Shown here one piece after another: positions 19,440 to 23,905 of a DNA stretch of 64,000 bases (positions within the stretch are counted from its first letter, which is position 1; the number at the start of each line of letters is the position of its first letter). Position numbers and translations under genes: made by a program. A model generated the notes under the pieces. The model was not told the DNA's origin and did not search any database. It saw only the letters and a list, made by a program, of their open reading frames with translations. This stretch comes from Caenorhabditis elegans. Taxonomy: Eukaryota; Nematoda; Chromadorea; Rhabditida; Rhabditidae. Location: assembly GCF_000002985.6 (NCBI RefSeq), contig NC_003282.8, positions 6,324,001 through 6,388,000 of the forward strand. Direction: 5' to 3'.

Positions 19440-19542
19440 AGATGAGAATTTCATTTTTATTTTAATCTCTTTTTAGTTTTCGGTTTTTTTTCGTGTTCGC
19501 AAATAATACTACAGCTCAACGCTACGTGGATATGAAAGTTAT
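19440..19542 (+). pseudogene. blos-2 duplicate, left fragment (intron 1 and exon 2)
   Basis: From about 19440 the sequence tracks blos-2 intron 1 (gagaatttcatttttatt, agttttcggtttttttt, gtgttcg), then jumps to exon 2 (aataatactacagctcaacg, gtggatatgaaagtt). Part of intron 1 and the start of exon 2 are therefore deleted. It stops abruptly at the LINE and resumes at 23549. Confidence 0.85.
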
Positions 19543-19672
19543 ATATATATATATATATCATTCATTCACGTCTTCAAGGCAAAACATATAAGGGGAGAGC
19601 GTATGCAAATAATCACAGGGAAGAATTGGTGGATGATAAAATGATCCCATAAACCAGTACTAGTTTGAGAGA

Positions 19673-22564
19673 TCAAGTTGGGGGAATGAGAATATTAAGG
19701 GGGAAAGAATTTAACCGGGAAGCAAACATAGAGCGATTTAATTTTTCCGGGATTTGCTTTGCTAGGCGGTTCCAGGTGGCGAGGTTGACTCTGAGGAATC
19801 CTTTGTTTGTTTCGCCAACAGATCTGAGCATGTAGGGGTATCTTGGAGTTACAGCTTTCTTCACCGACGATGACACATTTGGGTAGTGGAAGTTTCCAGT
19901 TATGATGTTGTGGTAGGTGCGAAGGATCTGCAAGACCCGCCTATGTTGCACTGACTTCAAATTGGCTTGGGCCAAACGATCCTCGTATGAAGAATACTTT
20001 ATGTTGCAGCGTTGGAAGACGAGCCTGGTGAAGAAACGGAGAGGCTTTTCCAGTTGTTTGATTAGAGCCCCCGAGGTGGGACTATAGATTTCGCATCCAT
20101 AATCGAGTATTGGTTGAACATAAATATTGTACAGCTTGAAGTATAGGCTGGCATTTGTTGAGCGAAAAGCCCTGAGGAGTTGCCGGCATTTGAGTAGTGC
20201 TGCATTTGTGACATAAGTGATGTGGCCGTGGAAATTTAGTTTGTCGTCAACGAATATGCCGAGATCCTTCACTGATTTCTTCTTAGCGATGATGATACCA
20301 TTCGCAGTGTAGACAAACTTCGGAATATTTTTTCCATAATGAACGACTACAGACTTGTTTTCTGCCAAGTTGAGACTCCATTTTCTGCACCAATCCGTGA
20401 CAATATCGATAGACTTTTGGATTGAATTGCTGTTGTCACCATATATCTTTATGTCGTCAGCAAATGCTGATATTTGAACATCAGGAGGGAACATTCCGAG
20501 CAAGTCATTGATATATATCAAAAACAGGAACGGTCCACAGACGGAGCCTTGAGGCACTCCAGACAGAACCTCAAGTTTGTTCTTGGAGACGTGGTCGCAT
20601 ACTTTTATGGATGAGGTCCGATTGCTGAGGAAAGAACGAAACCAATTGCACATTTTGACATCCAGGCCGAATAGTTCCAACTTGCAGAGCAGTAGGTTGT
20701 GTGGCACGCTGTCGAAGGCCTTCTTGAAATCCAAGTATATGGCATCCACATACTTAGAACAGATCGTCAAGGAGTCAAGGATTTTGGAGCTTGCATTGAG
20801 CAAGGCAAGGGTGCATGAGCGGGAATTCATAAAACCAAATTGCGATTTAGATATTTTGGAGCTGCATTCCTTTCTTAACTTCTCAACTATGAACTTCTCG
20901 AACACTCTCGATAGTGGGTGTGTCAAAGTGATCGGTCGATAATTGTTAGCATCCGTGCGGCAACCTTTTTTATGCACAGGCACAATGGTAGAAGATTTCC
21001 AAATTTCCGGAAATTGGCCAGAGGCATACGACTCAGAGAAAATGAGTGACAGAGATACAGAGAGCGAGTGCACACACTTCTTGATGACGAAGAAATTGAT
21101 ATTATCCTGCGAGAATCCGATTTTGGGTCGTAACTTCTGAATGATCCTGCATATATTTATTGGCGTAAAGTCCGGATCAATTGCGATGGGCTTTTGGGCA
21201 GGCAGGGCTGGGAACGGATCAGAGGGTGGTGTGAAGGATTTGGCAAAAGAGTTGAGAAATTCATCCGCGATAGTCACTGAGTTTGTAGATAATTGTCCTT
21301 TGACCACGAGACAAGTCACATGAGACGGAGTAGACGTTCGTTTCTTCGCCATTGAGAACAGTTGTCTGGGATTTTTAGACTCAACAATTCGATTTTCCTC
21401 TTTTGCAAGCATCTTCTTGATAGAGCGTAGACGAGCTTTGATAGACTTCTTTTGATCGGAAGGTGGACTCCTGAGCCGGCGCTGTTTGACTCTCTTTCGC
21501 AAGTTCGTCTTGAAGTTGGGAGATATTGTATTAGTCAGTTTGGCAGCAGGTGTGAATTCACGTATCAACTCGTTGAATATTTTTAGGAAATGGACCAGTT
21601 TCGTTTCGCATCGGGAGAAGTAGGAAAATTGTCGAGCCCAGTTGAAGATCAGAAGATGGTTGTTCAGAGCTTCAAAGTTACACTTCCGGAACTGAAGAAT
21701 AGTAGTTTGCCTGTTTAATCGACGTGCAGTTCTCGTATAATTCAGGACCAAGTTAAATCTTATTGTGGAGTGATCAGAGAGCATTATTGGTGAGTCGATA
21801 CTGACATTTGAGATCAGTGAAGGAGAATCCGTGAACAGGAGGTCAAGGAAGTTTTGCTTTCCAGACATGGCTGTACGAGTGGGCTTCTTTATAATTTGCG
21901 CAAGATTGTGAGAGAACATAAGATCAGACAGGTCCTGGTGAATGTTTATTGGTAGTTGATCCAGTTTGTCCCATATGAGATTTGGCAGATTGAAGTCTCC
22001 CAGTATGAAGTGGTAGTTTGCAGGACTGCTGATGAGCTCTGACAGGTTGCTGTAGAGGGCAGCAGTTTGTTGGATAGATGTATCTGGGGGTCGATACACA
22101 AGTATGATTTGCGACATTATAAGTGAGGGTTTGTGGAAAATGGCAACTCCTCCTCCTCCTCTGGATTTCGGGTGAGATTGTAGGCGGTCGGAACGAATGC
22201 ACATCAGGTCCATAGTAGAGCATAGCGAAGATGGCGTATCCGGTGACAGAAATGTTTCGGTCAAGAAAAGAATATCGATATTTTCTTCCCGTATATAATC
22301 CTGGATGTATTTCCAACGCTCCGCCGAAGCAATTGATCTGATGTTGGCAGAAGCACAATTGAGCTTACTAAGAGAATCCACAGAGGATGTCGATTGATGA
22401 TTAGCAGGTGTTGGAGCGGTTGCTTGTCGCTTCGTAGCAGCTTTTTGAGTCGAATTTGATAGGGTTGTTGACTTTTTAGTGTATAGCATGGCGGCAGTGA
22501 ATGCAGTTGACTTGGCATTTGATGATTTGGCAGTTGAGTGAACAGGAGTAATTTTGGCCACCAT
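19673..22564 (-). CDS. LINE ORF2: AP-endonuclease and reverse transcriptase
   Basis: 963 aa, uninterrupted. The N-terminal APE-type endonuclease shows SANIRS, ILFLTETFL, VYRPPD, LGDFNLP and SDHSTIRF (about residue 263). The reverse transcriptase shows PVHKKG, NYRPITL, YLDFKKAFDSVPH, GVPQGSVCGPFLFLIYINDL and catalytic FADD (about 700-703), followed by thumb and C-terminal segments. The endonuclease nicks target DNA and the RT copies element RNA from the nick. All core motifs are intact, so the copy could encode active enzyme. No RNase H domain is evident. Confidence 0.93.
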   Translation of the reverse strand: MVAKITPVHSTAKSSNAKSTAFTAAMLYTKKSTTLSNSTQKAATKRQATAPTPANHQSTSSVDSLSKLNCASANIRSIASAERWKYIQDYIREENIDILFLTETFLSPDTPSSLCSTMDLMCIRSDRLQSHPKSRGGGGVAIFHKPSLIMSQIILVYRPPDTSIQQTAALYSNLSELISSPANYHFILGDFNLPNLIWDKLDQLPINIHQDLSDLMFSHNLAQIIKKPTRTAMSGKQNFLDLLFTDSPSLISNVSIDSPIMLSDHSTIRFNLVLNYTRTARRLNRQTTILQFRKCNFEALNNHLLIFNWARQFSYFSRCETKLVHFLKIFNELIREFTPAAKLTNTISPNFKTNLRKRVKQRRLRSPPSDQKKSIKARLRSIKKMLAKEENRIVESKNPRQLFSMAKKRTSTPSHVTCLVVKGQLSTNSVTIADEFLNSFAKSFTPPSDPFPALPAQKPIAIDPDFTPINICRIIQKLRPKIGFSQDNINFFVIKKCVHSLSVSLSLIFSESYASGQFPEIWKSSTIVPVHKKGCRTDANNYRPITLTHPLSRVFEKFIVEKLRKECSSKISKSQFGFMNSRSCTLALLNASSKILDSLTICSKYVDAIYLDFKKAFDSVPHNLLLCKLELFGLDVKMCNWFRSFLSNRTSSIKVCDHVSKNKLEVLSGVPQGSVCGPFLFLIYINDLLGMFPPDVQISAFADDIKIYGDNSNSIQKSIDIVTDWCRKWSLNLAENKSVVVHYGKNIPKFVYTANGIIIAKKKSVKDLGIFVDDKLNFHGHITYVTNAALLKCRQLLRAFRSTNASLYFKLYNIYVQPILDYGCEIYSPTSGALIKQLEKPLRFFTRLVFQRCNIKYSSYEDRLAQANLKSVQHRRVLQILRTYHNIITGNFHYPNVSSSVKKAVTPRYPYMLRSVGETNKGFLRVNLATWNRLAKQIPEKLNRSMFASRLNSFPLNILIPPT

Positions 22565-23479: not shown

Positions 23480-23548
23480 TTCGGCAAAAATCGATACGAG
23501 AGCAAGAACAATATGCGACCGACCGCTGGGGAGAACGGGAGGACGAGT

Positions 23549-23905
23549 GTTATCGAGGAGAAGGTGGCTGGAAAACTGCATAACTTGAATCAAAAATGTC
23601 GGTTTTGAGAGAATTCAAATATTAAGCTTTCTATATTCCTGTGTTTAGTTATTTTGGAAACGTAAAAAGTAATTTTCAGACGAGAATCTGCGTCCATATC
23701 TTTTCCAAATTGACGCTATGGATGAGAGCACCCGAAGATTGGAAGAAGCTATCGCTGTTCTTGAGAATTATGTTACTCAAATCGGCTAGTTAGTTATATT
23801 CCAACGAGACTTTCAAGTTTTAATTTCAGAATCCAAGCTCGCCAACATACAATAGCAAAGCCATTAAATACGCAACAATTTCCTTTTTTCTGTAATTTCA
23901 TTTAT
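23549..23905 (+). pseudogene. blos-2 duplicate, right fragment (exons 2-4)
   Basis: Resumes blos-2 exon 2 at gttatcgaggagaaggtggc, then copies of intron 2, exon 3 (gagaatctgcgtccatatct), intron 3 and exon 4 through the stop region and early 3' UTR. Against the functional gene the exon 3 donor is destroyed (ggctag in place of gtaggt). Substitutions such as aac atc caa to aac ata caa occur. No promoter or exon 1 copy is present. Confidence 0.85.

What the first reader, a model, noticed from the sequence alone, without database searches (positions are those of the whole stretch)
19440..23905. blos-2 duplicate split by an intact LINE
Sequence matching blos-2 intron 1/exon 2 ends at 19542 and resumes in exon 2 at 23549, with a 4-kb two-ORF LINE between and GTTAT at both edges. 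The order of events is readable: partial duplication, then retrotransposition. The duplicate has lost exon 1 and part of exon 2 and has a destroyed donor, so it was probably non-functional already.
Basis: seen in the sequence. Interest (0 to 1): 0.7.

Follow-up and report, generated by a model that had tools for sequence, protein, structure and literature searches.

The report
Dead blos-2 copy, twice transposon-split
A worm chromosome carries a broken second copy of the small lysosome-related gene blos-2 that was interrupted by a LINE retrotransposon and again by a nest of other transposons; this is an ordinary gene fossil, with weak hints that the copy worked for a while before it died.

Summary
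A DNA-level partial duplicate of blos-2 (introns 2 and 3 kept) is interrupted in exon 2 by a 4,006-bp minus-strand two-ORF LINE (19543-23548) flanked by GTTAT (19538-19542 and 23549-23553). "Duplication, then LINE" holds: the two blos-2 lineages differ by about 0.09-0.17 neutral changes per site each, and the LINE can have gathered at most about 0.015 since landing.

Three corrections. (1) The LINE is not intact: both ORFs are open, but ORF2 lacks 27 endonuclease residues (81 bp, in frame) that relatives keep. The two other full-length copies found are broken elsewhere. (2) The duplicate is split a second time: blos-2's 3' flank (11011-11203) resumes at 28970-29139, beyond about 5.06 kb of nested transposons. 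(3) "Probably non-functional already" is plausible but unproven. A copy dead from birth is rejected in six of nine clocks tried (p 0.0001-0.009) but not with synonymous sites alone (p 0.24) or the best-aligned non-coding blocks (p 0.08, 0.23), so an earlier functional period has about even odds.

This is a normal gene relic, a new member of a known kind. Presence or absence in wild isolates could not be tested.

The parts
10219..10967 (+). parent gene blos-2 (exons 10219-10354, 10570-10689, 10779-10883, 10930-10967; 132 aa)
   Evidence: splice-joined ORF without internal stop; Pfam BLOC1_2 E 2.6e-28; identical over 132 aa to PDB 9tqb_H, BLOC-1 subunit 2; blos-2 = Y73B6BL.30 in Table 3 of PMC3419718 (passage)
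19442..19499 (+). duplicate: part of blos-2 intron 1 (~10438-10495)
   Evidence: blastn 80%, E 2e-7
19499..19502 (+). internal deletion in the duplicate: parent 10496-10604 (intron 1 acceptor and first 35 bp of exon 2) missing
   Evidence: block ends; junction printed
19502..19542 (+). duplicate: exon 2, part left of the LINE
   Evidence: 97% identity over 39 bp, E 2e-12
19538..19542 (+). left copy of target-site duplication GTTAT (3' side of the LINE)
19543..23548 (-). LINE, 4,006 bp, 3' (AT)n tail at the 19543 side, 5' end at 23548
19673..22564 (-). LINE ORF2, 963 aa from this ATG (frame open for 997 codons): AP endonuclease + reverse transcriptase
22106..22108 (-). site of the 81-bp in-frame deletion (27 aa) in the endonuclease domain of this copy (about 22107)
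   Evidence: absent here, present in L013 and L014 and in related elements
22667..23479 (-). LINE ORF1 from the ATG at 23479 (the open frame itself runs on upstream past the element's 5' end, to 23593)
   Evidence: no Pfam family above cutoff
23549..23553 (+). right copy of target-site duplication GTTAT (5' side of the LINE)
23549..23905 (+). duplicate: rest of exon 2, intron 2, exon 3, intron 3 (donor GT->GC), exon 4 (in-frame TAG four codons before the original stop), start of 3' flank
23906..28969 (.). second insertion in the duplicate, about 5.06 kb of nested transposons; 20-nt inverted repeats (80%) 23910-23929 / 28946-28965 at its ends
   Evidence: (pair I22, one of 44 pairs in the region)
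28970..29139 (+). duplicate resumes: copy of blos-2 3' flank 11011-11203
   Evidence: 68% over 193 columns, E 6e-18; bit score 84 against a maximum of 45.4 in 100 shuffles

Best explanation
A segment of chromosome holding at least blos-2 intron 1 (partly) to about 240 bp past its stop codon was copied at the DNA level to a place about 9 kb downstream in the same orientation. The copy lost function through absence of exon 1, deletion of the exon 2 acceptor and point lesions (order unknown; about even odds that it worked for a while first). Late in that history a LINE of a small family entered exon 2 in antisense by target-primed reverse transcription, leaving a target-site duplication of 3 to 5 bp. 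Separately, a nest of transposons landed in the 3' flank. The LINE itself is now defective: a 27-residue in-frame deletion in its endonuclease domain. Shown: collinearity, retained introns, target-site duplication, the deletion, the second split, relative ages. Inferred: target-primed mechanism (from the family), timing of gene death, any functional period, loss of endonuclease activity.
For: Collinear blocks and no other copy found in the genome. Introns 2 and 3 present, so not a retrocopy. GTTAT on both sides. In the same LINE family 7 of 14 copies show a flanking direct repeat of at least 4 bp and 5 of 14 at least 5 bp, against means of 0.99 and 0.54 when flanks of different copies are paired, and 0 of 5000 shuffles reached either count. 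Relative age: duplicate versus parent 0.09-0.17 changes per neutral site per lineage by clock; LINE dN to the two other full-length copies 0.011-0.015, which bounds neutral change since insertion. 81-bp gap unique to this copy among three full-length copies; the lost residues are kept in L013 and at 5 of 6 other distinct places compared; Pfam Exo_endo_phos 36.4 bits for this whole ORF2 against 54.8 for the 267-aa homologous piece of L013. Second split.
Against: 5 of the 14 LINE copies, L013 among them, show no flanking repeat of 3 bp or more by the same procedure and 2 of 14 show 3 bp. The left GTTAT abuts an (AT)n tail, so its last two bases could come from the tail. The spacer between the LINE's ORFs differs at 10 of 102 sites from L013 and L014, far above the 0.015 bound; I read that as divergence between element lineages before insertion, but it is not shown. 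Evidence for a functional period is mixed (see rivals). No outgroup, transcription or wild-isolate data.
Confidence: 0.85

Rival explanations
1. On the copy's early history: it was never functional (a 5'-truncated duplication, dead from birth); exon conservation is only the parent's own constraint.
For: Exon 1 is absent from the duplicate and no second exon 1 was found. 8 synonymous, 8 amino-acid and 1 stop change. Neutrality since birth is not rejected with synonymous sites alone (p 0.24), nor with the best-aligned non-coding blocks (p 0.08 and 0.23).
Against: Exons differ at 17 of 228 sites where introns 1-2 and the 3' flank differ at 81 of 310 or, with intron 1 counted on its gapped alignment, 72 of 308. 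Neutrality since birth rejected in six of nine calibrations (p 0.004, 0.0007, 0.0001; 0.003, 0.009, 0.008), even granting the parent no amino-acid change.
Confidence: 0.4
2. Gene conversion from blos-2 kept the duplicate's exons similar; it was never under selection.
For: Synonymous sites are also less diverged (dS 0.19) than most non-coding sequence, though not significantly (Fisher p 0.21).
Against: Conversion would have to spare introns 2 and 3 (82 and 45 aligned sites) lying between three conserved exons; tracts are not expected to respect exon borders (inference).
Confidence: 0.1
3. The duplicate is a processed retrocopy made by LINE machinery.
For: A LINE sits in it.
Against: Introns 2 and 3 are retained and aligned; part of intron 1 and the 3' flank about 240 bp past the stop codon are copied too.
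Confidence: 0.01
4. The LINE was already in place and the flanking match is coincidence or a duplication carrying the LINE along.
For: None found.
Against: The parent has no LINE; the two halves meet exactly at a repeated GTTAT at the collinear parent position; the LINE's neutral age is at most about 0.015 against 0.09-0.17 for the duplication.
Confidence: 0.02

Closest known systems
Non-LTR retrotransposons (LINEs) with AP endonuclease; probably the CR1-like lineage of C. elegans (clade name recalled, not tested)
   Same: Two ORFs, endonuclease plus reverse transcriptase in ORF2, no LTRs, short microsatellite 3' tail, 5'-truncated copies, short variable target-site duplications
   Different: This copy lacks 27 conserved residues of the endonuclease domain
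Duplicated (unprocessed) pseudogenes
   Same: Partial copy with introns, disabling lesions, insertions of transposons
   Different: Nothing clear; exons may have been conserved for part of its life
C. elegans blos-2 (Y73B6BL.30), BLOC-1 subunit 2
   Same: The window's parent gene encodes exactly the 132-aa chain of PDB 9tqb_H; name from PMC3419718 Table 3 (passage)
   Different: The duplicate keeps only exons 2 (part), 3 and 4

Membership tests
Non-LTR retrotransposon (LINE, AP-endonuclease type) | reverse transcriptase domain with catalytic motifs | tested here: met
   Pfam RVT_1 E 4.3e-38 over profile 1-203 of 205; AFADD and LDFKKAFD align to R2 reverse transcriptases of solved structures
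Non-LTR retrotransposon (LINE, AP-endonuclease type) | complete AP endonuclease domain | tested here: not met
   domain recognised (Exo_endo_phos_2 E 5e-15) but 27 residues missing relative to relatives; lowers the claim of an active element, not of LINE ancestry
Non-LTR retrotransposon (LINE, AP-endonuclease type) | target-site duplication | tested here: met
   GTTAT on both sides (minimum 3 bp if the tail supplied AT); family-wide control
Non-LTR retrotransposon (LINE, AP-endonuclease type) | no long terminal repeats; 3' tail; 5'-truncated siblings | tested here: met
   only a 10-bp match (E 0.37) between the two terminal 501-bp stretches; (AT)n tail; 5'-truncated copies
CR1 clade | reverse transcriptase groups with CR1 in a phylogeny | not tested
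   no reference CR1 sequences were at hand; clade placement is recalled only
Duplicated (unprocessed) pseudogene | retains introns of the parent | tested here: met
   introns 2 and 3 and part of intron 1
Duplicated (unprocessed) pseudogene | disabling lesions | tested here: met
   exon 1 absent, exon 2 acceptor deleted, intron 3 donor GT->GC, TAG in exon 4, two insertions
Duplicated (unprocessed) pseudogene | no function or transcript today | not testable with these tools
   no expression data
Processed pseudogene (retrocopy) | introns absent | tested here: not met
   introns 2 and 3 present

The most novel reading that the evidence does not exclude
For much of its life the duplicate was a working second blos-2 gene, preserved by selection, that died in the C. 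elegans lineage. The LINE (and perhaps the loss itself) may still be polymorphic between wild isolates, so a dated loss of a BLOC-1 subunit paralogue could be tested.
Probability: 0.25. Interest if true: 0.45.

Novelty: new member of a known kind. Interest (0 to 1): 0.3.

Why it matters
Mostly a clean worked example. The insertion order and relative ages of a gene duplicate, a LINE and a nested transposon stack can be read from one locus. If the functional-period reading is right, it records the loss of a second blos-2 gene. It also shows that a LINE with two open frames can still be defective, because an in-frame deletion hides from a stop-codon count.

Tried and rejected
Retrocopy origin: rejected by retained introns. 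Missing 81 bp as a spliced-out intron: rejected by reading; the absent segment printed has no GT...AG borders and is conserved protein in relatives. Exon 1 remnant: none found in 16000-36000 of the window or genome-wide. A dispersed-repeat explanation for the 28970-29139 match: genome searches with 28966-29200 and with 10990-11180 each return only the query itself; neither found the other, so these searches do not reach about 70% identity and cannot exclude diverged repeats. Mapping the endonuclease deletion on a solved endonuclease: phmmer with the L013 piece found no endonuclease structure, only weak RIO2 kinase matches (6 of 6). Family name of the LINE: literature searches listed no usable description of C. 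elegans families; of those papers only PMC1291365 was opened, as passages. PMC5850821 was also seen as passages. Searches for the locus in print (blos-2; Y73B6BL.28 to .31) and for a C. elegans pseudogene with a retrotransposon insertion listed no title on this duplicate; of the papers listed by these three searches, PMC4316625 and PMC3419718 were opened, as passages.

Numbers that changed. One search recounted from MAFFT alignments (17/58; 42/170 or 19/99), but its intron 1 alignment is ungapped and overcounts: the gapped blastn alignment has 8 mismatches in 56. Best-aligned blocks are biased towards similarity, so they understate neutral change. In one search the global alignment is wrong left of the internal deletion (10400-10600); block positions are taken. 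The exon 3 translation was started out of frame; codon comparisons are. No structure prediction was run.
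Full report
Where it is. The window lies at 6,324,001-6,388,000 of contig C4 of a held genome of 100,286,401 bases in 7 contigs. The parent gene at 10219-10967 splices to a 132-aa protein. It matches Pfam BLOC1_2 (E 2.6e-28) and is identical to chain 9tqb_H, BLOC-1 subunit 2. PMC3419718 lists blos-2 as Y73B6BL.30 (passage of Table 3). That the genome is C. elegans strain N2 and that C4 is chromosome IV is recall.

The observation. Three collinear blocks match blos-2 on the same strand: 19442-19499 (intron 1), 19502-19540 (exon 2), 23549-23867 (exon 2 to exon 4), with E from 2e-7 to 5e-84. A genome-wide search finds the parent and these three blocks (4 of 4 matches). The duplicate lacks exon 1, the first part of intron 1, and parent 10496-10604 (the intron 1 acceptor and the first 35 bp of exon 2). 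Intron 3's donor reads GC instead of GT. Exon 4 carries a TAG four codons before the parent's stop codon. Introns 2 and 3 are kept, so it was copied as DNA. Whether exon 1 was lost or never copied cannot be told.

The LINE. It occupies 19543-23548 on the minus strand, 4,006 bp, with GTTAT at 19538-19542 and 23549-23553 where the parent has a single GTTGT at 10641-10645. ORF2 has reverse transcriptase (E 4e-38) and endonuclease domains. ORF1 has no Pfam match above cutoff. The two ends share no long repeat. A search with the 3' end of the element gave 23 matches in the genome. I examined the ends of 15 of the 23: the 3 full-length copies and 12 others. Dropping one diverged copy without an AT tail (L029) left 14 for the repeat test. 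7 of 14 show a flanking direct repeat of at least 4 bp, 5 of 14 at least 5 bp, 2 of 14 3 bp, and 5 of 14 none (L013, a full-length copy, among these). Pairing flanks of different copies gives means of 0.99 (at least 4 bp) and 0.54 (at least 5 bp), and 0 of 5000 shuffles reach the observed counts. The last two bases of the left GTTAT could belong to the (AT)n tail, so the certain minimum is 3 bp.

Not intact. Three full-length copies were found: this one, L013 (C4:16.24 Mb) and L014 (C6:16.45 Mb), about 97% alike; the search tool calls its counts lower bounds. This copy lacks 81 bp in frame, 27 residues of the endonuclease domain. The same residues are present in L013 and at 5 of the 6 other distinct places compared; at the sixth (L015/L004) the match does not reach that stretch. 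The Pfam Exo_endo_phos score is 36.4 bits for this whole ORF2 and 54.8 for the 267-aa L013 piece. The L013 copy has a stop within its reverse transcriptase frame. The L014 copy has a shortened ORF1 frame and a 4-base shift in ORF2. So none of the three full-length copies found is free of defects. Loss of endonuclease activity in this copy is inferred, not shown.

Ages. This copy carries 93 differences not shared by L013 and L014, which have 8 and 9 of their own. Three copies cannot say on which side of the split the 93 arose. dN/dS between this copy and L013 is 0.19 (ORF2 from its ATG) and 0.30 (ORF1 from its ATG), so most differences probably arose in active ancestors. dN of 0.011-0.015 is an upper bound for neutral change since insertion. 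The spacer between the ORFs differs at 10 of 102 sites, which by this reading is divergence of element lineages before insertion. The duplicate and blos-2 differ by 0.09-0.17 per neutral site per lineage, depending on the clock.

A second split. The parent's 3' flank 11011-11203 matches 28970-29139 in the same order and strand (68% over 193 columns, E 6e-18; bit score 84 against at most 45.4 in 100 shuffles). Between 23905 and 28970 lie about 5.06 kb with 20-nt inverted repeats, 80% complementary, at their ends (23910-23929 and 28946-28965; one of 44 inverted pairs in the region, but lying within about 5 bp of the homology breaks). Relatives elsewhere show nesting. In L072 the end pieces 23943-23998 and 28825-28884 lie side by side. 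In L071 the inner element runs from 23997-26328 straight to 28587-28806, without 26329-28586. So the duplicate originally ran at least from 19442 to 29139.

Was it ever functional? Exons differ at 17 of 228 sites (8 synonymous, 8 amino-acid, 1 stop; codon positions 5, 3, 9). Intron 2 differs at 22/82 and intron 3 at 21/45, the latter poorly aligned. The intron 1 part differs at 17/58 on an ungapped alignment or 8/56 on the gapped one, and the 3' flank at 42/170. I compared a model in which the duplicate was neutral from birth, with the parent changing no amino acid, against one with a free rate. It is rejected with three non-coding calibrations (p 0.004, 0.0007, 0.0001) but not with synonymous sites alone (p 0.24). 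In one search it is rejected with intron 2 (p 0.008), intron 2 plus the short 3' block (p 0.009) and all three blocks with gapped intron 1 (p 0.003), but not with intron 1 plus the short 3' block (p 0.08) or intron 1 alone (p 0.23). The fitted average omega runs from 0.31 to 0.61. The case for a functional period is suggestive, not settled. The total dN between duplicate and parent, 0.053, exceeds the LINE's maximum neutral age of about 0.015. Gene conversion is not excluded. No outgroup was available.

Verdict. A confirmed but ordinary relic: an unprocessed duplicate pseudogene interrupted by a defective LINE and by a second transposon nest. Wild-isolate presence or absence was not testable here. 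PMC5850821 surveys transposon sites across 152 strains (passages); the 12 passages shown do not mention this site.

Noticed in passing
23906-28969: Several-level transposon nest in the duplicate's 3' flank: an outer short element with imperfect inverted ends, an inner repeat family (at least 20 other matches to its left end, some two per element), and a further 2.26-kb stretch (26329-28586) with large palindromes absent from the C2 relative L071.
   Followed up: partly
about 23528-23548; L013 about 679-718; L014 about 633-693: The LINE family's 5' end carries a unit of about 20 bp present once here, twice in L013 and three times in L014, like a variable 5' repeat array.
   Followed up: partly
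L027 1379-1788 (C5:2911746-2912154): A roughly 410-bp copy joins about 125 bp of the LINE's 5' end directly to its last 288 bp: apparently a non-autonomous internal-deletion derivative. L026 and L029 begin at almost the same internal point (window 19829-19830).
   Followed up: partly
19081-19365: Palindromic MITE-like element about 75 bp left of the duplicate's left edge (inverted arms); it may mark where exon 1 was lost.
   Followed up: no
9838-10132: Inverted-repeat element immediately upstream of blos-2 exon 1 with relatives at 12433-12538, 13339-13604 and 14099-14170.
   Followed up: no
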